12,364 nt of DNA from the NCBI GenBank assembly GCA_026987995.1, contig JALSMC010000200.1:1-12364 (forward strand), read 5' to 3'. Source of the stretch: Sulfurimonas sp. (GTDB lineage Bacteria; Campylobacterota; Campylobacteria; Campylobacterales; Sulfurimonadaceae). The notes beneath the pieces are model-generated. The model saw only the letters and a list, made by a program, of their open reading frames with translations, had not been told where the DNA came from and ran no database searches. Shown here piece after piece: positions 1 to 10,663 of the stretch. The translations under genes and the position numbers were made by a program. Positions within the stretch are counted from its first letter, which is position 1. Each line of letters starts with the position of its first letter.

Positions 1-690
1 ATAGATGAGTACTTTTTAAACAAGGATAGACTAATTCGCTTTATAGGTATAAACTCAAATGTTGATGTAGGATATATAGAAACACTTATAAAAAATAATG
101 AAAAGGTAGACATAAATTACCTTTATGAAAATAGACTGATGGGTGAGAGAGGTCGGCTAATATGCAGTTGTGAGCATGTTTATCATCGAGATTTAGTAGA
201 TATTGTTATGCAAACGGGTATTAGTTCCTTTAGCGAACTTGCAAACTTTAGTAGAGCAGGTAGAGTGTGTGGCAGATGTAAGGTGATGGTGCAAGATGTA
301 ATACAAGAGTCACAAAAGCTGATAGACCCAAATATACCAAGAAAAACAGTAGAAGATATAAAAAGAGAAAAAGAGATAGCAAAGGTTCAAAAACGCATAG
401 ATAAGTTTAATGCTTTAAATCCAAAAAATGAACTCAGTGCTGATAACCTAGATGCCGCTTTGGACTCTTTGGATATAGCAAAAAGTGAAGTAAATAGTTG
501 GATTTCAATGGTGACAGCAAATATGCAACTGCACCCAAGCTTTGAAACAGTAGTAGATAAGAGTGTTAAAGCATTAAACAGAGTACCTATTATATGGCTA
601 GAGCTTGCAGATTGTAGTGGAAATTCTGAAGCCTTTATCAAGTCTGCTAATCCTTCTATTGAAGATTTGATATTAATGGTTCTTATTTAA
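1..690 (+). CDS. Oxidoreductase C-terminus with BFD-like [2Fe-2S] domain fused to a truncated hydrogenase small-subunit N-terminus (5' partial)
   Basis: The frame is open from the first base, so the true start lies upstream; 229 residues are visible. Residues 1-45 resemble the tail of a NirB-type FAD/NAD(P)H oxidoreductase (inference). Residues 52-105 carry C54-x-C56 and, 32 residues later, C90-x2-C93, the cysteine pattern of BFD-like [2Fe-2S] domains. Residues about 120-229 align with residues 30-130 of HydA in this window. From residue 193 the match is strong (NRVP, then I-W-x-E-L, then D-C-x-G-N-S-E-A), and it ends where HydA continues into its catalytic-side fold. The protein stops about 24 residues after the only cluster cysteine (C205), so it cannot form a complete proximal cluster. 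Its role is unknown: electron transfer between NAD(P)H, a flavin and a hydrogenase is possible, or it may be a decaying fusion. It precedes tetR-hupSL on the same strand, 91 bases away. Confidence 0.75.
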   Translation: MDEYFLNKDRLIRFIGINSNVDVGYIETLIKNNEKVDINYLYENRLMGERGRLICSCEHVYHRDLVDIVMQTGISSFSELANFSRAGRVCGRCKVMVQDVIQESQKLIDPNIPRKTVEDIKREKEIAKVQKRIDKFNALNPKNELSADNLDAALDSLDIAKSEVNSWISMVTANMQLHPSFETVVDKSVKALNRVPIIWLELADCSGNSEAFIKSANPSIEDLILMVLI

Positions 691-749: not shown

Positions 750-781
750 AGGGGAAAAAACAATAGTAGCATGGGGTGGAT

Positions 782-1375
782 ATGGCAAGAGTATCAAAAG
801 AAGAGCGAAAGAGTGGGATTATATCAGCTGCATTAAAGCTTTTTTCTCAAAAAGGGTTTTATGTAACAACTATTCCTGATATCGCTGAAAAAGTTGGCAT
901 GAGTGTTGGAAACTTTTATAATTATTTTACTTCTAAAGACCTACTTGCTAAAGAACTCGTTCTTTATATATCTCAATATCTTGGAGATAAGATTCGTGCT
1001 ATAAATGAGAGTGATGACTCCAGCGAAATTAAAATCCAAAAAATAGTCACGATGTACTTTGATATGGCAACTGAAAAACCAGAGATGATAGAATATTTTT
1101 TACGTGTATATCTTTCTAATCGTGAAGTATTTGGTGAAGGCTGTGAAGGTATGACCTGCGTTTCGCCTTTTATCACAGAGATGATGATATTTTTTAGTGA
1201 TGGTGTTGAGTCTGGTGAGTTACATAACCAAGACTTTTTTAGTGCTTTTGGGCTTTTTATGGGCTATCTTGGTGGTATGGTTTTTCTCTTTGGAGAGAAA
1301 ATACTACCTGACCCACTAGAAGAGTATAAAGAGTCTATCTCTTTAAATATTTACAATGCACTCAAAACAAGATAA
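782..1375 (+). CDS. TetR/AcrR-family transcriptional regulator
   Basis: A 197-residue protein of normal TetR length. Residues about 8-54 form the N-terminal helix-turn-helix domain. It has the typical layout: A-A-L-K-L-F-x-x-K-G-F, then T-T-I-P-D-I-A-E-K-V-G-M-S-V-G-N-F-Y-N-Y-F, then S-K-D-x-L. The rest is an all-helical ligand-binding domain with no recognisable ligand signature. ATG 782 is preferred because GGGG at 773-776 sits five bases upstream; an in-frame GTG at 776 is the alternative. Its end overlaps hupS by 20 bases, so it is almost certainly co-transcribed with hupSL and is a likely regulator of this operon and perhaps of the hyd and cyd operons (inference from position). The effector is not evident; C-terminal cysteines occur but form no cluster motif. 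Confidence 0.88.
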   Translation: MARVSKEERKSGIISAALKLFSQKGFYVTTIPDIAEKVGMSVGNFYNYFTSKDLLAKELVLYISQYLGDKIRAINESDDSSEIKIQKIVTMYFDMATEKPEMIEYFLRVYLSNREVFGEGCEGMTCVSPFITEMMIFFSDGVESGELHNQDFFSAFGLFMGYLGGMVFLFGEKILPDPLEEYKESISLNIYNALKTR

Positions 1376-2261
1376 AAAACTAAAACTTCTTTGGTTTCAG
1401 GGTGTCACCTGCAATGGTAACACTCATTCCTTTTTAAACCTCCCTAATATCGAACAACTTCTTGAGAACTTTGAAATTCTTTATCATCCTATTTTACCAT
1501 CTATATATTCATTAGAAGAGATACTTAAACTTGAAGAGAATTGTGACCTATTTCTCTTTGAAGGAACTTATGACCCTTTGATGCAGCATAATGGTGTGGA
1601 GTTGTCAAAAATTGTTGATTATTACACTAAGCATGCTACTCATGTCATTAGTGTTGGAACTTGTGCTAGTTTTGGTGGTATGTTCAAAGCAACAGCTCCA
1701 GAGAGAAATAGCGGACTCATCTTTAATGAAGAGGAGAGTTTTGGACCACTACTTGAACAAAAACAAAAAGTGATAAACCTTTCAGGATGTCCTGTACATC
1801 CAGAGTGGCTAAGTTATACACTAAGTATGATAGTCTCAGACAAAGAGGTAGAAGTAGATGAACTTCATCGTCCCATAGAGCTCTATAGTAACTTAGCACA
1901 TCATGGTTGTACTCGAAATGAGTATTTTGAGTGGAAAGTTGATGTAGATAATTTTGGAGAAAAAGAGGGCTGTCTTTTTTACAAACAGGGCTGTCGTGCA
2001 CCGATGACTCATGCCTCATGTAACAAAATACTTTGGAATGAAGTAAGCTCTAAAACGCGAGTAGGAACTCCATGCTTTGGTTGTACTGAACCTGATTTCC
2101 CTCGAACAGATATGTTTAGCACTAAAACAAATATGTCTATTCCTCAAGATACACCTCTTGGTGTACCAAAACGCAGTTACTTAACACTTACAGGTATTGC
2201 GAAGACTTTTCATATAAAAAGATTAGAAGGAAAACTCATTGATTACAAAACAACTCGTTGA
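1356..2261 (+). CDS. hupS: Cytoplasmic NiFe hydrogenase small subunit (cyanobacterial-like, group 2)
   Basis: Small subunit of a soluble NiFe hydrogenase, carrying the FeS relay from the HupL active site. It is 301 residues, with no Tat signal and no C-terminal membrane anchor, so it should stay in the cytoplasm. The first motif is W-F-Q-G-V-T-C19-N-G-N22, matching the 'QG..C.GNT' start of cyanobacterial HupS rather than the CxxC of classical group 1 enzymes. Other cluster residues are C103 (VGTCASFGG), C145 (SGCPVHP), H183 and C185, C206, C213, C222, C240 and C243 (PCFGCTEPDF). It lacks the extra cysteines of O2-tolerant enzymes. The ATG lies inside the tetR end and has no clear Shine-Dalgarno, so translation probably depends on coupling. 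The last 23 bases overlap hupL. Function could be H2 uptake or H2 sensing. Subgroup (2a/2b/2d) is not settled from sequence alone. Confidence 0.92.
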   Translation: MHSKQDKKLKLLWFQGVTCNGNTHSFLNLPNIEQLLENFEILYHPILPSIYSLEEILKLEENCDLFLFEGTYDPLMQHNGVELSKIVDYYTKHATHVISVGTCASFGGMFKATAPERNSGLIFNEEESFGPLLEQKQKVINLSGCPVHPEWLSYTLSMIVSDKEVEVDELHRPIELYSNLAHHGCTRNEYFEWKVDVDNFGEKEGCLFYKQGCRAPMTHASCNKILWNEVSSKTRVGTPCFGCTEPDFPRTDMFSTKTNMSIPQDTPLGVPKRSYLTLTGIAKTFHIKRLEGKLIDYKTTR

Positions 2262-3537
2262 TAAGATAGAAGGTGAGGCTTCTCTTTACTTTGAACTAGA
2301 AGATGAGAAAGTAAGTTTTGCTACTGTAAGCTTCCCTCATACTCGTGGGATGGAGCTGATGCTAGAAGGTAAAAATGCTCTTGATGCTTTAGTCATAACC
2401 CCACGAGTCTGTGGTATTTGTGGACATGCACATCTAATGGCTACTGTTAGAGCTATAGAAGATGCTTATAAAAATGCAGGATATGAGATACACTTGAGTG
2501 AAAAAGTAGAACTGCTTCGAGAGTTCACTCTAGTTATGGAAATGGTACAAAATCACTTTAAGTGGATGTACTTAACTATTATCCCTGCATTATCAAAACT
2601 AACAAATAGTTCCCAAGAACTTACACCACTTAAAGGTGCATTTGCTGCAAGTATCGCTACAAAAGCAATTGCTACCTTTGCAGGACAATGGCCCCACTCT
2701 TCATATATGATTCCAGGTGGAGTTACAGCTGATCCTACAAATATAGATATTTTAAAAGCACAGAGTTATTTAAGTGAGCTGAAAACTTTTTTTGAAAAAG
2801 AGTCTTTAGGAGTTTCGCTAGAAGACTTTTTAGCTTTTGATTCTTGTAATGATTTTACTAAACTCTCCAGTGATGTTGGAGCACTCAATGAAGCTTTGTT
2901 AAAAACAGATATGCATATAAAAGGTTTCGCGGATGATACTTTTATTGTTTTAGGTGAACATACATTTACTGAGGTTACAAAGCTAAAACATACACGTCAT
3001 ATTGGAGTACAACACAAATATGTGAGTACTGAGCCCTCTTACTCTCCACATGAAAAAACATATGCGAAGAATGCTCTGTATAAAGATGCTTATTATGAAA
3101 CAGGTCCATTAGCTCGTTCCCTCTCAAATAATTTTGCTATTATCAAAAATATACATAGGCGTTATAAAGATAGTGCTTACTCTCGTGTCATGGCAAGAGT
3201 GTTTGAACTTGCGTCACTTATACAACATGCTTCTTCTTTGCTGAAAAAACTTGATATAGCGGACACATCTTTTACAAAATCAGTAGATATATCTAAGATA
3301 AATGCTAGAGGAGTTGGTGTTGTTGAAGCACCGCGAGGACCGCTGATGCATACTATAGATATAGAAAATGGAGTGATTAAAAAATATAGTATCATCACTC
3401 CAACTCAGTGGAATATAGGAAGTTCTCATAAAGAAAAACCAACTCCTGCACAAAGAGCCATGATAGGACTCACAAAAGAAGAAGCTAACTTTGTTTTTCG
3501 TACTTTTGATGTCTGCTCAGTTTGTACTACTCACTAA
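2239..3537 (+). CDS. hupL: Cytoplasmic NiFe hydrogenase large subunit without C-terminal extension
   Basis: Catalytic subunit binding the NiFe(CN)2CO centre: R-V-C58-G-I-C61-G-H near the N-terminus and C426-x2-C429-x2-H432 at the C-terminus. At 432 residues it is short for a large subunit. The stop codon follows H432 directly, so the tail that maturation proteases normally remove after this His is absent, as known for regulatory HoxC/HupV-type and some other group 2 hydrogenases. The usual D-P-C before the C-terminal pair is D424-V425-C426 here. The start is TTG 2239, overlapping hupS by 23 bases. An upstream stop at 2224-2226 excludes longer forms, and AGAAGG (2225-2230) sits eight bases before it as a good ribosome binding site. 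It is followed by a convergent cytochrome bd operon. No HoxJ-like kinase is visible, so a sensing role is unproven. Confidence 0.92.
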   Translation: MITKQLVDKIEGEASLYFELEDEKVSFATVSFPHTRGMELMLEGKNALDALVITPRVCGICGHAHLMATVRAIEDAYKNAGYEIHLSEKVELLREFTLVMEMVQNHFKWMYLTIIPALSKLTNSSQELTPLKGAFAASIATKAIATFAGQWPHSSYMIPGGVTADPTNIDILKAQSYLSELKTFFEKESLGVSLEDFLAFDSCNDFTKLSSDVGALNEALLKTDMHIKGFADDTFIVLGEHTFTEVTKLKHTRHIGVQHKYVSTEPSYSPHEKTYAKNALYKDAYYETGPLARSLSNNFAIIKNIHRRYKDSAYSRVMARVFELASLIQHASSLLKKLDIADTSFTKSVDISKINARGVGVVEAPRGPLMHTIDIENGVIKKYSIITPTQWNIGSSHKEKPTPAQRAMIGLTKEEANFVFRTFDVCSVCTTH

Positions 3538-3744: not shown

Positions 3745-4869
3745 TTAATAATGATGTGAATCATTTTGTATCTCTTCAACTGTTAACTTCGTTTTATCCA
3801 TTGACTTCCATACAACAATTATATAAGCCAATACTATTGGTACTAAGAGTGATACAACTGCCATAACACTAAGTGAATAATAGCTTCCAGAACTATTTTC
3901 TATACTTAATGAACTCTGCATGTCAGAAAGCGATGGATAAAATATAGAGTTGTCAATTCCTAAAATAAAGAGTAAAAAAGTAACAGTTATTACAGTACCT
4001 GTTCCTGTAAGAAATATAGCTTTTGAAGAAGACTCAAAAACTGCAGTATATACTCCAAATAGTAGTGCTAAAACACCAGATGTAAATCCAATCAGAGAAA
4101 GAGTGGAGTTTAAAAATATGTGCAAGAACTTATTTGGCTCTATACTTACAACTTTTGAACTCTCATCATATACATAACCATCTTGAAGTAAAATTGTTGC
4201 AAGTATATATAAAAAAAGTACTAAAAATATAGTAAAGTTTTTCTTCACAACACTTTGAACTCTTGAATGAATGGCTTCATTATCAAGCGAGTTATAAAAG
4301 TATAAAGCACCTTGAACACGAGCTAAAAATACAAGCATCAGTCCAAATGCAAGGTTAAAAGGACTCAGTAGTGCTTCTAAACCATAACTATCTTGTGTCC
4401 ATTTTGAGAAGTTATACTCATTAACTGTAAAGTTCCCACCACTAAAGAGTGTCCCAAGAGCAACACCGATAAGAAAAATTCCCAATGAACCATTAATATA
4501 CAAAAGAGTTTCATAAAATCTTGTACCATATACATTGTCAGGTTTTTTTCTATACTCATATGCTACAGCTTGAATAATAAAACAAAAAAGTATTGTCATC
4601 CAAACATAATAGGCTCCACCAAAACTTACTGCATAAAAAAGAGGAAATGCTGCAAAAAGTGCACCACCAAACATAACGAGTGATGTAAATGTAAGTTCCC
4701 ATTTTCTTCCTAATGAGTTCACAAGTAAATCTCTCTCTTCTTCATTTTTAGCTAATGTATAAAGGAGAGTTTGTCCACCTTGTATAAAAGTCATAAAAAC
4801 AAAAAATGCCCCTATTAGACTTACTAAAAACCACCAGTAAACCTGTAAACCATATAATGTAATTTCCAT
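3745..4869 (-). CDS. cydB: Cytochrome bd quinol oxidase subunit II
   Basis: A polytopic membrane protein of 374 residues, close to the usual 340-380 for CydB, and partner of CydA in quinol:O2 oxidoreduction in the inner membrane. Family marks include F-G-G-A-L-F-A-A-F-P-L-F-Y at about 77-89, a following Y-E-Y-R motif, and the C-terminal L-V-P-I-V-L-A-Y-I segment. The first helix reads Q30-G-G-Q33 where E. coli CydB has D-G-F-D; this variant is what I recall from Bacteroidetes and Campylobacterota enzymes that travel with DUF4492. The ATG follows the cydA stop with no spacer, and its ribosome binding site (GAGGAG) lies inside the last cydA codons, so the two are translationally coupled. Confidence 0.93.
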   Translation of the reverse strand: MEITLYGLQVYWWFLVSLIGAFFVFMTFIQGGQTLLYTLAKNEEERDLLVNSLGRKWELTFTSLVMFGGALFAAFPLFYAVSFGGAYYVWMTILFCFIIQAVAYEYRKKPDNVYGTRFYETLLYINGSLGIFLIGVALGTLFSGGNFTVNEYNFSKWTQDSYGLEALLSPFNLAFGLMLVFLARVQGALYFYNSLDNEAIHSRVQSVVKKNFTIFLVLFLYILATILLQDGYVYDESSKVVSIEPNKFLHIFLNSTLSLIGFTSGVLALLFGVYTAVFESSSKAIFLTGTGTVITVTFLLFILGIDNSIFYPSLSDMQSSLSIENSSGSYYSLSVMAVVSLLVPIVLAYIIVVWKSMDKTKLTVEEIQNDSHHY

Positions 4870-6399
4870 TTAGTGCTCCTCTGGACCTATTTTAATCTGT
4901 TTTAACATAATTTTTATTTCTGCTATTAGTAAACCTGTAAAAAGAACAGCAAATAGCCAAAATGTAATCATAACACTAGTTGCTGCAACATTTGATGCAG
5001 CCATTCCTACTGGTAGCATTCCTTGAATAGCCCAAGGTTGCCTTCCGACTTCTGCTACAATCCATCCAGCCTCTTGAGCTACATAGCCTAGAGGAAGAGT
5101 AAACATGGCTATATATAAGAACCATCGCTTTTGCTCTATAACATTTATCATAGTGAAATAAAGTGATATAAAGAAAATAAGCATAAATAGAGTTCCTAAA
5201 CCAACCATAGTGTGAAAACTATAAAAAGATATGGCAACATTTGGTACAGCATCTTCAGGTTTTTCTAAATATCCATATCCCATGTATTGCTGATATGTTT
5301 CAAAAATTTTAAGAGATTCTGCCGTTTTTTCCGAATCTCCCTCTTTTTTATATTTTTTATAATCTTTTAGTGCTTGGAGTGCAATTTTTCCCTGTCTCAT
5401 CATTTCTGTTACAGGCGTAAGGTCATGATTTTTATTTCCATAGAGTAAATCATCTATTCCAGGTACAAAAGCATTTACATCATGGTAGCCTAAAAAGGAA
5501 AGTGCTCCAGGAATCTCAAAACTAAAATGAAACGGATCTTTTCCATCAGCTATCTCTTTGGTATCATCTAGGAGACCAAATGCAATAATTCCAGCTCTTT
5601 TTTCACCTTCATATAGACCTTCCATCGCTGCAAGTTTCATCGGTTGGTTTTGTGCCACTTGGTGTGCGGACTCGTCTCCTGTGGCAAGTAAAAAAAGTGA
5701 GGCAGTTAGTCCAAATGTTGCTGCAACAACAATGCTTCTTCTAGCAAACTGTGTATCTCTTCTTTTTATGAGATACCATGAGCTAATCGCAACAACAAAG
5801 AGTGAAGCAAGTACATACCCACTTGTAACAGTATGTAAAAACTTACTCACTGCGTTTGGATTAAAAAGAACTGCCCAAAAATCAACCATTTCATTTCTTG
5901 CAGTGTCTGGGTTAAAGTGCATCCCTACTGGGTGTTGCATCCAACCATTAGCGACCAAAATCCAAAGAGCAGAGAGGTTTGAACCTAAAGCGACTAACCA
6001 TGTAGATGTTAGGTGCATTCTTTTAGTGACTTTATCCCATCCAAAAAACATTACTGCAAAGAATGTAGACTCCATGAAAAATGCCATCAATCCTTCTATT
6101 GCAAGAGGTGCACCAAAAATATCACCAACAATCCAAGAGTAATTTGACCAGTTTGTCCCAAACTCAAACTCCATAATAATTCCAGTAGCCAAACCAATAG
6201 CAAAGTTAATAGCTAAAAGACCCATCCAAAATTTTGTGATAGTTTTCCATTTTTCATCACCACTACGTACATATATAGTTTCCATAATAGCAACTATAAA
6301 TGTTAAACCTAATGTTAGTGGTACAAAAAGCCAATGATAGAGTGCTGTTAGTGCAAACTGTGCACGCGACCAATCTATAAGTAGTTCACTGTGTTCCAT
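4870..6399 (-). CDS. cydA: Cytochrome bd quinol oxidase subunit I
   Basis: Subunit I, 509 residues, carrying hemes b558, b595 and d and oxidising quinol while reducing O2 to water. Haem ligands expected from E. coli are present: H22 (b595/d pocket), H189 (F-L-H-T-V) and M398 (F-H-T-M). Also conserved are E102 and E110 (I-E-G-L-M-A-F-F-M-E), the quinol-loop K255 and E260 (K-L-A-A-M-E) and G452-R-Q-P-W. The stretch between K255 and M398 is long, so this looks like a long-Q-loop enzyme of the E. coli CydA type rather than a short CioA type. The ATG is preceded by AAGGAA and lies two bases after the DUF4492 gene. Expected role: high-affinity terminal oxidase under microaerobic conditions, taking quinol reduced by the hydrogenase encoded divergently. 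Confidence 0.96.
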   Translation of the reverse strand: MEHSELLIDWSRAQFALTALYHWLFVPLTLGLTFIVAIMETIYVRSGDEKWKTITKFWMGLLAINFAIGLATGIIMEFEFGTNWSNYSWIVGDIFGAPLAIEGLMAFFMESTFFAVMFFGWDKVTKRMHLTSTWLVALGSNLSALWILVANGWMQHPVGMHFNPDTARNEMVDFWAVLFNPNAVSKFLHTVTSGYVLASLFVVAISSWYLIKRRDTQFARRSIVVAATFGLTASLFLLATGDESAHQVAQNQPMKLAAMEGLYEGEKRAGIIAFGLLDDTKEIADGKDPFHFSFEIPGALSFLGYHDVNAFVPGIDDLLYGNKNHDLTPVTEMMRQGKIALQALKDYKKYKKEGDSEKTAESLKIFETYQQYMGYGYLEKPEDAVPNVAISFYSFHTMVGLGTLFMLIFFISLYFTMINVIEQKRWFLYIAMFTLPLGYVAQEAGWIVAEVGRQPWAIQGMLPVGMAASNVAATSVMITFWLFAVLFTGLLIAEIKIMLKQIKIGPEEH

Positions 6400-6777: not shown

Positions 6778-6821
6778 ATATTATGGTGAATAGTAATTCA
6801 AAATGAAGAAAAGGAAATGTG

Positions 6822-8060
6822 ATGAGCATGGAAAACGAAGAATCTGTAAAGAAACTCTTTACAGCAGAAAGTGCGAAAGTGGATACGAATAAAGGTGATG
6901 CATATTATGAAGAGTTATATGCATCTTGTCAAGAGAGAATTGAAGACTTAAAAAAACTTGCACCTCTTAACAATAGAGTTGATTTTACAGAAAGTATAGA
7001 AGACCAAGGTTTAGGAAGAAGAGATTTCTTACAGTGGGCTTCTGCGACTACTGCGATGCTTATGCTTCCTGCTTCATTTACACCACTTGTAGCTGAGGCT
7101 GCAGTTCTTATGAACAGAGTGCCTGTTATCTGGGTTGAGCTTCAAGATTGTGCAGGTAACTCTGAAGCACTTCTTCGTTCAGATGGACCAAAAATTGATG
7201 AAATCATTTTAGATATTATCTCATTAGAGTTCCATGAAACACTTCAAGCCGCTTCTGGTCACCAAGCTGAAAAGCAGATGGATGAAGCTATGGAACACTT
7301 CAAAGGGAAGTATTTACTCTTTGTTGAAGGTGCGGTTCCACTAGGAATGAATGGTCAGTTTGGTACTATTGGTGCTAAAGGTGAAACATTTGTAGAACAC
7401 TTACATCGTGCAGCTGAAGGTGCAGCAGCAGTTGTTGCTGTAGGTTCATGTGCTACTTTTGGTGGTATTCCAGCAGCTGCTCCAAACCCTACTGATGCAG
7501 TTGGTGTTATGGATGTTGTTAAAGGGAAGCCACTTATAAATATTCCTGCTTGTCCAGCAAATCCTTCAAACATGGTAGGAGTTATTCTTCACTATGTACT
7601 CACAGGAACTATTCCAGAACTCGATTCTCTTTTACGTCCAAAGTTTGCATTTGGATATAGAATCCATGATAACTGTGAAAGACGTGCACACTTTGATGCA
7701 GGTGAGTATGTTGAAGAGTGGGGTGACGAGGGTGCGAAAAATAACTTCTGTCTCTACAAAGTAGGATGTAAAGGTCCAATGACTTTTAATAACTGTTCTA
7801 TTATTCGTTATAACGAAGGTGTGAACTGGCCTATTGGTGTTGGTCGTGGTTGTATAGGATGTTCTGAACCAGATTTCTGGGATAAGTATGCATATGAGCG
7901 CCCAATGGCAAATGCTAACATCAAAGCACCGACAGGTGGAGTAGAAAAAACAGTTGATGAGTTTGGTCTTGGGCTGTTAACAGTTGCAAGTATCGGTATA
8001 GGTATACATGCAGCTGCAAGTGCTATTGCAGGTAAAAGAGAAGATGGAGGAGAATACTAA
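6822..8060 (+). CDS. hydA: Periplasmic membrane-bound NiFe uptake hydrogenase small subunit, Tat-exported
   Basis: 412 residues. A hydrophilic lead of about 64 residues, as in Wolinella and Helicobacter HydA, precedes a Tat signal: R66-R67-D-F-L, hydrophobic core, likely cleavage near A-E-A (91-94). Cluster residues are C110, C210 and C244 (proximal), H282, C285, C310 and C316 (distal), and C325, C344 and C347 (medial). The second proximal cysteine of the classical C-T-G-C motif is N113 here. The extra cysteines of O2-tolerant enzymes are absent (G112 and G215). Residues 382-403 form a C-terminal membrane anchor containing H396, a candidate ligand for the HydC haem. ATG 6822 is chosen because AAGGAA lies five bases upstream; GTG 6819 and ATG 6828 are alternatives. 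The stop overlaps the hydB ATG by one base (TAATG). Confidence 0.95.
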   Translation: MSMENEESVKKLFTAESAKVDTNKGDAYYEELYASCQERIEDLKKLAPLNNRVDFTESIEDQGLGRRDFLQWASATTAMLMLPASFTPLVAEAAVLMNRVPVIWVELQDCAGNSEALLRSDGPKIDEIILDIISLEFHETLQAASGHQAEKQMDEAMEHFKGKYLLFVEGAVPLGMNGQFGTIGAKGETFVEHLHRAAEGAAAVVAVGSCATFGGIPAAAPNPTDAVGVMDVVKGKPLINIPACPANPSNMVGVILHYVLTGTIPELDSLLRPKFAFGYRIHDNCERRAHFDAGEYVEEWGDEGAKNNFCLYKVGCKGPMTFNNCSIIRYNEGVNWPIGVGRGCIGCSEPDFWDKYAYERPMANANIKAPTGGVEKTVDEFGLGLLTVASIGIGIHAAASAIAGKREDGGEY

Positions 8061-9901
8061 TGAGTAAAGTACACGGAAATGATGGCAACTTTCATCAGAC
8101 AGATAAAAATGGAAACAAGCATATAATTGTTGACCCGATTACAAGAATCGAAGGTCACCTTAGAATTGAAGCGGTAATTGACAAGAACAATACGATTATA
8201 GATGCATGGAGTTCTTCTACAATGTTTAGAGGGATTGAAACTATTGTAAAAAATAGAGATCCTAGAGATGTTGGTTTAATGACTATGCGTATTTGTGGTG
8301 TTTGTACAGGTACACACTACCAGCGTTCAATTGAAGCAGTTGAAGATGCATTTAATGTAACTATTCCTAAAAATGCTCGTATTGTTCGTAACCTTATTCA
8401 AGGTTCACTTCAAGTTCATGATCACTTTGTTCACTTCTATCACTTACATGCGCTTGACTTTGTAGATATTATATCTGCAACAAAAGCAGATCCAAAAAAG
8501 ACTGCTGCAGAAGCTATAAAATGGGCGAAAGCAGCTGGAACAACTCCATATATTTCAGGAGCTACAGACTTTAAAGCTATTCAAGATCGTATTGTTAAGT
8601 TTGCAAAAGAGGGTCGTTTAGGTATCTTTGGAAATGGATACTGGGGTAACAAGGGGTATAAACTTACTCCTGAGCAAAACCTTATTGGTGTGGCTCACTA
8701 CCTTAAGGGACTTGATGTTCAAAGACGTATGTCAAAAATGCATGCACTCTTTGGTGGAAAGTCTCCACACCCTCAGTCAATTGTTGTTGGTGGTGTTACT
8801 TGTGTTCAAGATATTCAAAACCCAGCTCGTATTGCACTTTTTCAAGAGCTACTACGTGAAACTACAGACTTTGTTAAACGTGCTTATCTTCCAGATATCT
8901 ATATGGCAGGAACAGCTTATGCAGCTGAAGCAACTGATGCATCACAATCTTTCCATGGTACTAACCATAAGGGAACATTAGGAAAAGGCATCGGTGGTTC
9001 TGGTGGAGGACTGTTGTCTTATATGTCTTATGGAGACTTTAGACTTGATGATACTGGTTTTTATAACTCAGCACTTTTCTTACCTTCAGGGGTAGTTCTG
9101 GATGGAGATATCACTCAGGTTCATGAACTTGATGAAGATAAGATTACAGAAGATGTAACACACTCATGGTTTGAAGGTACTGGTGCTCCTGAGCATCCTT
9201 ACGTTGGAACAACTATTCCTGAGTATACTGGACTTGATAAAAAAGATGATGGGTATGCTTATCTTAAAACTGATGGAAAATATTCTTGGATTAAATCTCC
9301 ACTATATGATGGCCGTAAGGTTGAAGTTGGACCACTTGCTCGTATGGTAATTGGATATGTTAAGGGTGATGAAACTATTACTAAGTATGTAGGAAACTTC
9401 CTTAAGCAGTCAGGTTTACCTCTAACGGTACTTTTCTCAACTGTTGGTAGAACAGCAGCACGTGCAATAGAGACTGAAATGATAGCTGATGCTATGCAAG
9501 ATTGGGCAGCTGAACTTGCTTCAAACGCAGCACATGGAGATCTTAGTACTTGGACAGAGTTTGACTTTGATAAAGTAAGTAAAGACTGTAGAGGTAGAGG
9601 TATGGCAGAAGCACCAAGGGGTGCATTAGGTCACTGGATCGTTATCAAAGATGGTTTAGTTCAAAACTTTCAAGCAGTAGTTCCATCTACATGGAATGCA
9701 GGACCACGTGGACCAAATGGTGAGATTGGGGCTTATGAAGCATCTCTTATCGGTACTAAGGTGGCAAACCCTGAAGAACCATTAGAAATCATTCGAACTG
9801 TACATAGTTTTGACCCTTGTATCGCTTGTGCTGTGCATGTAATGGATACAAATGGCAAGGAGTTAGCTGTATACAAAGTTGACCCTACTTGTGCATTTTA
9901 A
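8060..9901 (+). CDS. hydB: Periplasmic NiFe uptake hydrogenase large subunit
   Basis: 613 residues, the usual length of group 1 large subunits. It binds the NiFe centre that splits H2. Visible motifs are R-I-E-G-H-L-R (29-35), R-G-I-E (57-60), R-I-C79-G-V-C82-T and the C-terminal D585-P-C587-I-A-C590-A-V-H593. Twenty residues follow H593 (V-M-D-T to C-A-F), the tail normally removed by an endopeptidase after nickel insertion. It has no signal peptide and should be co-exported with HydA. GGAGGAG lies just before the ATG inside the hydA end. It fits group 1b of the Campylobacterota. The hydrogenase proper is HydAB, with HydC as electron outlet to menaquinone. Confidence 0.96.
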   Translation: MSKVHGNDGNFHQTDKNGNKHIIVDPITRIEGHLRIEAVIDKNNTIIDAWSSSTMFRGIETIVKNRDPRDVGLMTMRICGVCTGTHYQRSIEAVEDAFNVTIPKNARIVRNLIQGSLQVHDHFVHFYHLHALDFVDIISATKADPKKTAAEAIKWAKAAGTTPYISGATDFKAIQDRIVKFAKEGRLGIFGNGYWGNKGYKLTPEQNLIGVAHYLKGLDVQRRMSKMHALFGGKSPHPQSIVVGGVTCVQDIQNPARIALFQELLRETTDFVKRAYLPDIYMAGTAYAAEATDASQSFHGTNHKGTLGKGIGGSGGGLLSYMSYGDFRLDDTGFYNSALFLPSGVVLDGDITQVHELDEDKITEDVTHSWFEGTGAPEHPYVGTTIPEYTGLDKKDDGYAYLKTDGKYSWIKSPLYDGRKVEVGPLARMVIGYVKGDETITKYVGNFLKQSGLPLTVLFSTVGRTAARAIETEMIADAMQDWAAELASNAAHGDLSTWTEFDFDKVSKDCRGRGMAEAPRGALGHWIVIKDGLVQNFQAVVPSTWNAGPRGPNGEIGAYEASLIGTKVANPEEPLEIIRTVHSFDPCIACAVHVMDTNGKELAVYKVDPTCAF

Positions 9902-9913
9902 AAGGAGGACACT

Positions 9914-10663
9914 ATGAAAGCTAAACCAGGATATAGACAGGTAAAGCGTAGAACTGGTGCTCTGAGAATTATTCACTGGACAAATGTTATAGGAATGATT
10001 GCAGCAATAATTACGGGTTTATATATTGCGGATCCGTATTATCAAGCATTTATTGCTGATTCTGCTGTAGACAAATATGTTATGGCATGGAATCGTTGGA
10101 TACACTTTATGTTTGCTATTATTTTTGATGTAACATCTATAGTAGTAGTTTATTTGACATTCTTTTCTCGTGTTGAGCGTCCATGGACAAAGGTTATTCC
10201 AAATAAAAAGAATTTTATAGAGTTTTTTGAAGTACTTTTAAACTTATTAACATTAAATACACGTAAAAAGTTTAATTCAGAACATAACGATAGTTTTAAT
10301 ATTGCTTATTTCTTTCTATTTCATATTCTTATGATTTGGATGCTACTTACAGGTTTACAAATGTATGTACATGGTTTAGGTTCTGGGCTAAGTAGTATTG
10401 GTAATTGGTGGCCTTGGATGTTACACCTTGTGACTGACTGGACTCTTCCTGTTTCTTCATGGATGGCTGGTTCAACAGCAACGGGTAGTAATATTATGGA
10501 TGTACGTATTGCACATCATACGACTATGTGGTTACTTATTACATGGGTAGTATTTCATATCTATTACCAATTTTGGAGAACTATTTTCTGGAAAGAGGGT
10601 GATATATCTATCATTGTTGGTGGTAGTAAATATGTGAAAATTGAAGACGGAGAAAACAAGTAA
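9914..10663 (+). CDS. hydC: Hydrogenase b-type cytochrome subunit, quinone-reducing membrane anchor
   Basis: 249 residues with four main hydrophobic segments (about 20-40, 63-83, 128-152 and 200-222). Candidate haem b ligands are H21, H64, H201/H202 and H215, arranged as in HydC/HyaC cytochromes. It takes electrons from the distal HydA cluster and reduces menaquinone at the membrane. A near-perfect Shine-Dalgarno, AAAGGAGG (9901-9908), lies five bases before the ATG and begins in the hydB stop codon. The stop is directly followed by the hydD GTG. Confidence 0.94.
   Translation: MKAKPGYRQVKRRTGALRIIHWTNVIGMIAAIITGLYIADPYYQAFIADSAVDKYVMAWNRWIHFMFAIIFDVTSIVVVYLTFFSRVERPWTKVIPNKKNFIEFFEVLLNLLTLNTRKKFNSEHNDSFNIAYFFLFHILMIWMLLTGLQMYVHGLGSGLSSIGNWWPWMLHLVTDWTLPVSSWMAGSTATGSNIMDVRIAHHTTMWLLITWVVFHIYYQFWRTIFWKEGDISIIVGGSKYVKIEDGENK

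What the first reader, a model, noticed from the sequence alone, without database searches (positions are those of the whole stretch)
1..690. Oxidoreductase/BFD protein fused to a piece of hydrogenase small subunit
A BFD-type [2Fe-2S] domain (C54-x-C56, C90-x2-C93) is followed in the same frame by about 100 residues that track HydA of this window, with 16 of 29 identities over residues 197-225 by eye. The fused part ends before most cluster ligands, leaving only C205. It could be a docking module that mimics HydA, or a broken NAD(P)H-linked hydrogenase subunit. I do not know a described family with this layout.
Basis: partly seen in the sequence, partly recalled or inferred. Interest (0 to 1): 0.75.

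Follow-up and report, generated by a model that had tools for sequence, protein, structure and literature searches.

The report
Truncated reductase-hydrogenase fusion gene
The window opens with a cut-off copy of a gene that, in many related ocean bacteria, joins an NAD(P)H-handling enzyme to the wiring subunit of a hydrogenase, probably letting the cell turn hydrogen gas straight into reducing power, although databases name it simply as a hydrogenase small subunit.

Summary
In detail: 1-690 encodes a BFD [2Fe-2S] domain followed in frame by ~110 residues homologous to HydA. It is part of a split, truncated gene. Relatives carry the whole gene: ~805 residues, NirB-like FAD/NAD(P) reductase + BFD + complete [NiFe] small subunit, mostly followed directly by a complete large subunit (full-length in 41 of 135 genus genomes; 37 of 397 sampled phylum genomes). 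The small-subunit part keeps its cluster cysteines but lost the Tat arginines and the membrane anchor; the old signal region persists as an internal linker. An Arg after strand beta-2 (112 of 113) suggests NADP(H). Best reading: a soluble, cytoplasmic, two-subunit NADP-linked hydrogenase derived from a membrane group-1 enzyme, not described in the papers searched. Here the N-terminal part ends contig C45, the middle opens the window, homology stops sharply at base 674, and the rest and its large subunit were not found: a broken copy or a chimeric contig, not a conserved docking module. Catalysis, cofactor and location are inferred, not shown.

The parts
1..690 (+). 3' fragment of a fusion gene (residues ~344-568 of the 805-aa full-length relative L033, then 4 unrelated residues and a stop); the 5' part lies at the end of contig C45 of the same assembly
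157..309 (+). BFD-type [2Fe-2S] domain, Cys55, Cys57, Cys90, Cys93
355..576 (+). linker homologous to the N-terminal region and Tat signal of HydA; about 475-576 lies opposite RRDFLQWASATTAMLMLP of HydA but has no twin arginine
   Evidence: alignment; motif scan
577..674 (+). start of the [NiFe] small subunit, with Cys205 (613-615) in the motif DCSGN; ends before the other cluster ligands
674..675 (.). break point: homology to every full-length relative tested ends at 674; 675 to about 780 has no significant match in fetched loci or elsewhere in the own genome
776..1375 (+). TetR-type regulator (neighbour, not part of the fusion)
1356..3537 (+). HupS-like (1356-2261) and HupL-like (2239-3537) pair, no Tat motif (neighbour)
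6819..10663 (+). HydA (6819-8060, Tat signal), HydB (8060-9901), HydC cytochrome b (9914-10663): the separate membrane hydrogenase (neighbour)

Best explanation
The gene family is a soluble, cytoplasmic, two-subunit [NiFe] hydrogenase that couples H2 to NADP(H). Subunit 1 is one chain: a NirB/ferredoxin-reductase-type FAD module, a BFD [2Fe-2S] domain, a linker that is a former Tat signal region, and a complete group-1-type small subunit. Subunit 2 is a complete [NiFe] large subunit, usually encoded next door. Electrons most likely run H2 -> NiFe -> three small-subunit clusters -> BFD cluster -> FAD -> NADP+ (the reverse is possible), supplying NADPH for biosynthesis and carbon fixation. The copy in the window is a truncated remnant of this gene, or a chimeric contig, and as assembled cannot form the hydrogenase. 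Shown by sequence: architecture, ligands, loss of Tat motif and anchor, neighbouring large subunit, truncation in the assembly. Inferred: cofactors, electron path, direction, cytoplasmic site, NADP preference.
For: Full-length fusions in 41 of 135 genus genomes (one of them, G025, with an in-frame TAG) and 37 of 397 sampled phylum genomes in four families and 11 of 68 genera. Domains Pyr_redox_2, Fer2_BFD, Oxidored_q6 and NiFe_hyd_SSU_C in P0021; 117 of the 120 proteins shown (of 732 hits) have this set, the other three are 485-570 aa and lack only Pyr_redox_2. Of 117 proteins of 640 aa or more, BFD, distal and medial cysteine patterns occur in 117 and the proximal pattern (with CxGN) in 116. 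Large subunit directly downstream and complete in 16 of 24 loci, plus one running off its contig; both [NiFe] ligand motifs in 13 of 13 tested. No RRxF[LIM] in 25 of 25 fusion rows against presence in 23 of 23 HydA-type rows, and in none of 113 database fusions. Beta-2 Arg in 112 of 113. Fold match of the N-terminal part to ferredoxin reductases. One clade, 100/100. Truncation.
Against: No activity, location or cofactor has been measured. The small-subunit C-terminus of the structure model is below pLDDT 50, so the distance from BFD to the distal cluster is unknown. One usual proximal-cluster cysteine is Asn. Three of 24 loci have no adjacent large subunit (L058, L062, L072), three more are cut by contig ends and one has it in pieces. 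GSGPIG in 100 of 113 is the GxGxxG form often seen with NAD rather than NADP (the rule is recalled). Most fusion sequences come from metagenome assemblies, but complete or near-complete genomes (G032, G031, G009, G012) carry it too.
Confidence: 0.72

Rival explanations
1. For the window copy only: the truncation is an assembly or binning artefact; contig C200 joins the start of an intact fusion gene to the hyd cluster, and the organism has a complete gene.
For: The gene is already split at a contig end; the assembly has 334 contigs, 81.6% completeness, 4.25% contamination; the stretch after the break matches nothing; the reading frame up to the break is undamaged.
Against: No contig end with the missing 3' part or its large subunit was found in the own genome, though 18% of it is missing. 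Other genomes show damaged fusions too: G025 (in-frame TAG), G153 (TGA), and L073, where the gene is in pieces.
Confidence: 0.4
2. The intact enzyme works mainly the other way: NADPH-driven H2 formation as a redox valve, perhaps linked with the neighbouring group-4-type complex.
For: Complex-I-like genes (antiporter, NuoH-like, NuoB-like) lie downstream in several loci; checked by family in L056, by look in L033, L052 and L053.
Against: The hosts are H2-oxidising autotrophs in the papers seen (for example PMC7952632, passages), which need NAD(P)H rather than shed it. Sequence cannot fix the direction.
Confidence: 0.2
3. The reductase half does not use NADP(H) as partner but another acceptor or donor (for example persulfide or polysulfide, or NADH only).
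For: Fold relatives include CoA-persulfide, CoA-disulfide and NAD-dependent persulfide reductases; a cysteine follows YDRIHL in 111 of 113 proteins.
Against: The beta-2 Arg is nearly invariant, the NirB/ferredoxin-reductase match covers residues 4-446 including BFD, and the BFD domain is the usual outlet of such a module (recalled).
Confidence: 0.15
4. One reading: the short protein is a functional HydA mimic.
For: The frame is open and ends in a clean stop four residues after the homology ends.
Against: No conserved short form seen among the listed matches; the homology ends in the middle of a conserved strand with unrelated residues after it.
Confidence: 0.03

Closest known systems
Group 1 (HydAB/HynAB, 1b) membrane-bound uptake [NiFe] hydrogenase of Campylobacterota
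   Same: Small subunit homologous over its whole length (40-49% to window HydA); large subunit with the same ligand motifs; the CxGN proximal motif shared with the hyd-cluster HydA
   Different: No Tat motif, no C-terminal anchor, no cytochrome b gene next to it, and a FAD/NAD(P) + BFD half fused in front
NirB, NADH-dependent nitrite reductase large subunit
   Same: N-terminal 446 residues match the NirB model (FAD/NAD(P) fold plus BFD)
   Different: Score 158 against a cut-off of 578, and the siroheme half is replaced by a hydrogenase small subunit
NAD(P)-linked soluble hydrogenases (HoxFUYH, group 3d; Hyh/sulfhydrogenase, group 3b)
   Same: Works like them if the reading is right: H2 linked to NAD(P)(H) in the cytoplasm (inferred)
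   Different: Those have multi-subunit diaphorases of other families and group-3 catalytic subunits (recalled); the large subunit here scores best with group-1-type chains and sits with HydB rather than HupL in the tree
Putidaredoxin reductase / BphA4 type ferredoxin reductases
   Same: Best fold matches of the N-terminal ~400 residues, target TM-score about 0.8
   Different: They pass electrons to a separate ferredoxin; here the [2Fe-2S] carrier and the hydrogenase are in the same chain

Membership tests
[NiFe] hydrogenase (general) | Large subunit with both CxxC motifs binding the NiFe site | tested here: met
   RICGVC and DPC(L/I)AC in 13 of 13 fusion-linked large subunits; PF00374 E 4.7e-195 in L033. 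The window copy has no such large subunit of its own
[NiFe] hydrogenase (general) | Small subunit with ligands for the FeS clusters | tested here: met
   Medial and distal patterns 117 of 117, proximal pattern with CxGN 116 of 117; one usual proximal Cys is Asn. Not met in the window fragment, which keeps only C205
Group 1 membrane-bound uptake hydrogenase | Tat twin-arginine signal on the small subunit | tested here: not met
   0 of 25 fusion rows against 23 of 23 HydA-type rows; 0 of 113 database fusions
Group 1 membrane-bound uptake hydrogenase | C-terminal membrane anchor and cytochrome b partner | tested here: not met
   C-terminal hydropathy at most 0.86 in 103 fusions against 1.57-1.98 in 10 HydA; no HydC-like gene directly next to the fusion pair in the loci read
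Group 1 membrane-bound uptake hydrogenase | Placement by HydDB | not testable with these tools
   HydDB not on hand; in my small trees the subunits lie near HydA/HydB
NirB nitrite reductase | Siroheme/sulfite-reductase half | tested here: not met
   No such Pfam domain in P0021 or L042; model match stops at residue 446
NAD(P)-linked soluble hydrogenase (group 3b/3d) | Group-3 large subunit | tested here: not met
   Best solved relatives are group-1-type periplasmic chains; NAD-reducing chain 5xf9 only E 4.5e-23
NAD(P)-linked soluble hydrogenase (by function) | H2-dependent NAD(P)+ reduction | not testable with these tools
   Needs an enzyme assay; sequence only suggests NADP(H)

The most novel reading that the evidence does not exclude
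A new hydrogenase subtype: a periplasmic, membrane-anchored group-1 enzyme was pulled back into the cytoplasm by gene fusion, its Tat signal turned into a linker, and wired through a NirB-type BFD-FAD module to NADP+, giving the simplest (two-subunit) NADP-linked [NiFe] hydrogenase, with an Asn-modified proximal cluster. It is spread through Campylobacterota and hidden among the 'extra copies of group 1' in published comparisons.
Probability: 0.6. Interest if true: 0.8.

Novelty: new variant of a known kind. Interest (0 to 1): 0.66.

Why it matters
Sulfurimonas and relatives are major chemoautotrophs of vents and redoxclines. How they draw NAD(P)H from H2 is open: the cytoplasmic group-2 enzyme was proposed, but the soluble fraction of S. 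denitrificans showed no H2 uptake at the time sampled (PMC4149538, passages). A soluble NADP-linked hydrogenase in cultured species such as S. gotlandica would make this directly testable, would change how second and third 'group 1' copies are read, and would be a compact natural H2-to-NADPH enzyme. It would also be a clear case of a Tat-exported enzyme turned cytoplasmic by fusion.

Tried and rejected
Docking-module idea: rejected because relatives carry complete fusions and no conserved short end was seen among the listed matches. Simple frame shift at the break: rejected, since nothing after base 674 aligned with the rest of the fused gene in relatives and the three frames read on show no resemblance by eye. 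A shared spacer: 675 to about 780 has only chance-level matches in 11 TetR loci of relatives, and the own genome holds no second copy. The structure model was meant to give the BFD-to-distal-cluster distance; the small-subunit end is too poor for that. Trees: the join of fusions with CxGC-type HydA is weak (82/63) and the E. coli rows are long branches, so the exact HydA ancestor is open; the large-subunit bootstrap had not settled. Whole-fusion hydropathy: a 19-residue window somewhere in P0021, P0111 or P0086 reaches 1.95; I did not locate it, so a buried strand is assumed, not shown.

Full report
OBSERVATION. The frame 1-690 is open at the window start, and the window is a complete contig, C200 of a 334-contig assembly that is 81.6% complete. 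Fer2_BFD matches residues 53-103; cysteines are 55, 57, 90, 93 and 205. TIGR00391 (hydA) matches residues 150-226 at E 1.5e-12, while Pfam shows no small-subunit match. BLASTP to the window's HydA gives 72.8 bits over residues 119-228 against at most 21.9 bits in 200 shuffles, and 16 of 29 identities at 197-225.

WHERE THE REST OF THE GENE IS. Of 60 relatives searched, 38 matched, most of them only through HydA; 11 (L003-L013) carry open frames of 776-821 residues that match residues 1 or 2 to 225 at 55-79% identity, and a twelfth (L014) is cut by its contig end. In the own genome the N-terminal residues 1-341 lie at the end of contig C45 (open frame of 345) and the following residues open the window, so two contigs split one gene. 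Homology to the full-length relatives ends at base 674; the stretch to about 780 has no significant match in the fetched loci or elsewhere in the genome. The rest of the small subunit and a fusion-type large subunit were not found in the own genome; the only matches there were the HydAB and HupSL-like pairs of the window. As 18% of the genome is missing, this is not proof of absence.

WHAT THE FAMILY IS. In P0021 (Ca. Sulfurimonas marisnigri) Pfam finds Pyr_redox_2 1-276, Fer2_BFD 396-446, Oxidored_q6 548-695 and NiFe_hyd_SSU_C 715-795. In L033, the same gene read from genome G032, NCBIfam finds NirB over 4-446 (158 bits, below its cut-off of 578) and hydA over 491-795 (375 bits, above its cut-off of 180). 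A protein search with the small-subunit part, limited by design to long proteins, gave 732 hits, of which the best 120 were shown: all 120 carry BFD and both small-subunit domains, 117 also Pyr_redox_2; the other three are 485-570 aa. Names include S. gotlandica GD1 ('quinone-reactive Ni/Fe-hydrogenase, small chain precursor'), S. aquatica and Sulfurimonas sp. HSL3-2. Genus scan: 44 of 135 genomes matched at E 1e-130, 41 of them from residue 1 to at least 770 (one, G025, with an in-frame TAG); the other three are the own genome, G153 (with a TGA) and G024. Phylum sample: 46 of 397 matched at E 1e-110; by my reading of the rows 37 are full length, three partial (own, G024, G449) and six HydA-only; the full-length ones fall in families f1, f4, f6 and f9 and in 11 of 68 genera. 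The named scan returned 24 loci at 53-79% identity, then a gap to 30% or less.

OPERON. Of those 24 loci a complete large subunit follows directly in 16, one (L067) runs off its contig, one is in pieces (L073), three fusions are cut by the contig end (L051, L065, L071), and in three no large subunit is adjacent (L058, L062, L072). L060 and L072 are the contigs also held as L039 and L035. The 13 large subunits tested keep RICGVC, DPC(L/I)ACAVH and a C-terminal extension. A maturation protease follows in several loci (family checked in L057). Antiporter, NuoH-like and NuoB-like genes follow in others (family checked in L056; by look in L033, L052 and L053).

FROM EXPORTED TO CYTOPLASMIC. The alignment puts the HydA Tat region opposite a conserved internal segment of the fusion (VNSWISMVTANMQLHP). 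RRxF[LIM] occurs in 23 of 23 HydA-type rows (18 CxGN, 3 CxGC, 2 E. coli) and in none of 25 fusion rows; two rows too short to hold the region (one HydA piece, one fusion piece) and two HupS-like rows were set aside. None of 113 database fusions has it. Mean hydropathy of the segment is -0.07 in the 103 fusions that matched the anchor pattern and 0.64 to 0.90 in 10 HydA; at the C-terminus the maximum is 0.86 against 1.57-1.98. The inference is that the protein stays in the cytoplasm.

NUCLEOTIDE. The residue after strand beta-2 of the NAD(P) fold is Arg in 112 of 113 proteins (108 by pattern, 4 of 5 exceptions by eye; P0114 has Cys); the next is Gly 86, Ala 11 or Ser 11 in those 108. In eight Bacillota NirB-like proteins I see no Arg there (by eye). 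BphA4 chains with T176R/Q177G score above the wild-type chain in the sequence search (mutant titles; 1d7y is titled NADH-dependent). That such mutants were made to use NADPH is recalled. Against this, the loop reads GSGPIG in 100 of 113, a form often linked with NAD (recalled). NADP(H) is likely, not shown.

TREES AND MOTIFS. The 17 fused small subunits form one clade (100/100) beside campylobacterotal HydA; the nearest joining node is weak (82/63). Fusions (24 of 25 rows; L073 did not show the motif) and 18 HydA rows share CxGN where three other HydA have CxGC and E. coli CxCC or CxGC. That the replaced residue is a usual proximal-cluster ligand is recalled. Fusion-linked large subunits are parted from HydB and the E. 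coli chains by a 100/100 branch.

STRUCTURE. The AlphaFold model has mean pLDDT 77.2 and pTM 0.60; residues 1-380 are mostly near 90 and 717-805 almost all below 50. The N-terminal part matches ferredoxin reductases, target TM about 0.8; the 50 rows shown hold no hydrogenase, so the model gives no structural test of the small-subunit half. No claim on inter-cluster distances is made.

LITERATURE. No listing or passage seen describes this fusion. PMC7952632 (passages) classes hydrogenases by large-subunit trees and gives S. gotlandica three group-1 enzymes. PMC12403661 (passages) gives all seven of its strains, HSL3-2 among them, two group-1 copies. PMC12029903 (passages) calls group 1 membrane-bound. 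S. gotlandica and HSL3-2 have a fusion protein; that one of the counted group-1 copies is the fusion's partner is my inference. Passages of PMC4149538, PMC4584964, PMC10066037, PMC10811913, PMC12286921 and PMC6265342 were also read. Subscription papers were not available and supplements could not be read.

VERDICT. The window holds a broken or mis-assembled copy of a conserved and, in the papers searched, undescribed hydrogenase architecture, which most likely works as a soluble H2:NADP+ oxidoreductase.

Noticed in passing
window 6819-8060 (HydA) and 1356-2261 (HupS-like): The usual CxxC of the proximal cluster reads CxGN (DCAGN, CNGN), shared by 18 HydA rows and the fusions, while three other campylobacterotal HydA have CxGC.
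   Followed up: partly
window 3748-6399, minus strand: Cytochrome bd oxidase genes (cydA 4873-6399, cydB 3748-4869) lie reversed between the HupSL-like pair and HydABC; in relative L039 HydA follows HupL directly.
   Followed up: no
window 776-1375: A TetR-type regulator ahead of the HupS-like gene has relatives in 57 of 135 genus genomes at E 1e-30; a candidate regulator of the hyd cluster.
   Followed up: partly
L035 3449-6296 (same contig as L072): Four reverse-strand genes, the first looking like a SulP-type transporter, separate a fusion gene with an in-frame TAG near its end from its large subunit.
   Followed up: no
L073 6590-12596: Fusion and large-subunit genes both in pieces in one assembly: a second decayed or error-ridden copy.
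   Followed up: no
L033 5227-7929 and L056 13091-16195: A P-type cation ATPase (L033) and complex-I-like group-4-type genes (L056) lie next to fusion operons; a possible link of NADP- and ferredoxin-coupled H2 use.
   Followed up: partly
full-length fusions, residue 45 (L033 numbering): A cysteine follows YDRIHL in 111 of 113 proteins, near where related disulfide and persulfide reductases carry their redox cysteine (recalled).
   Followed up: no
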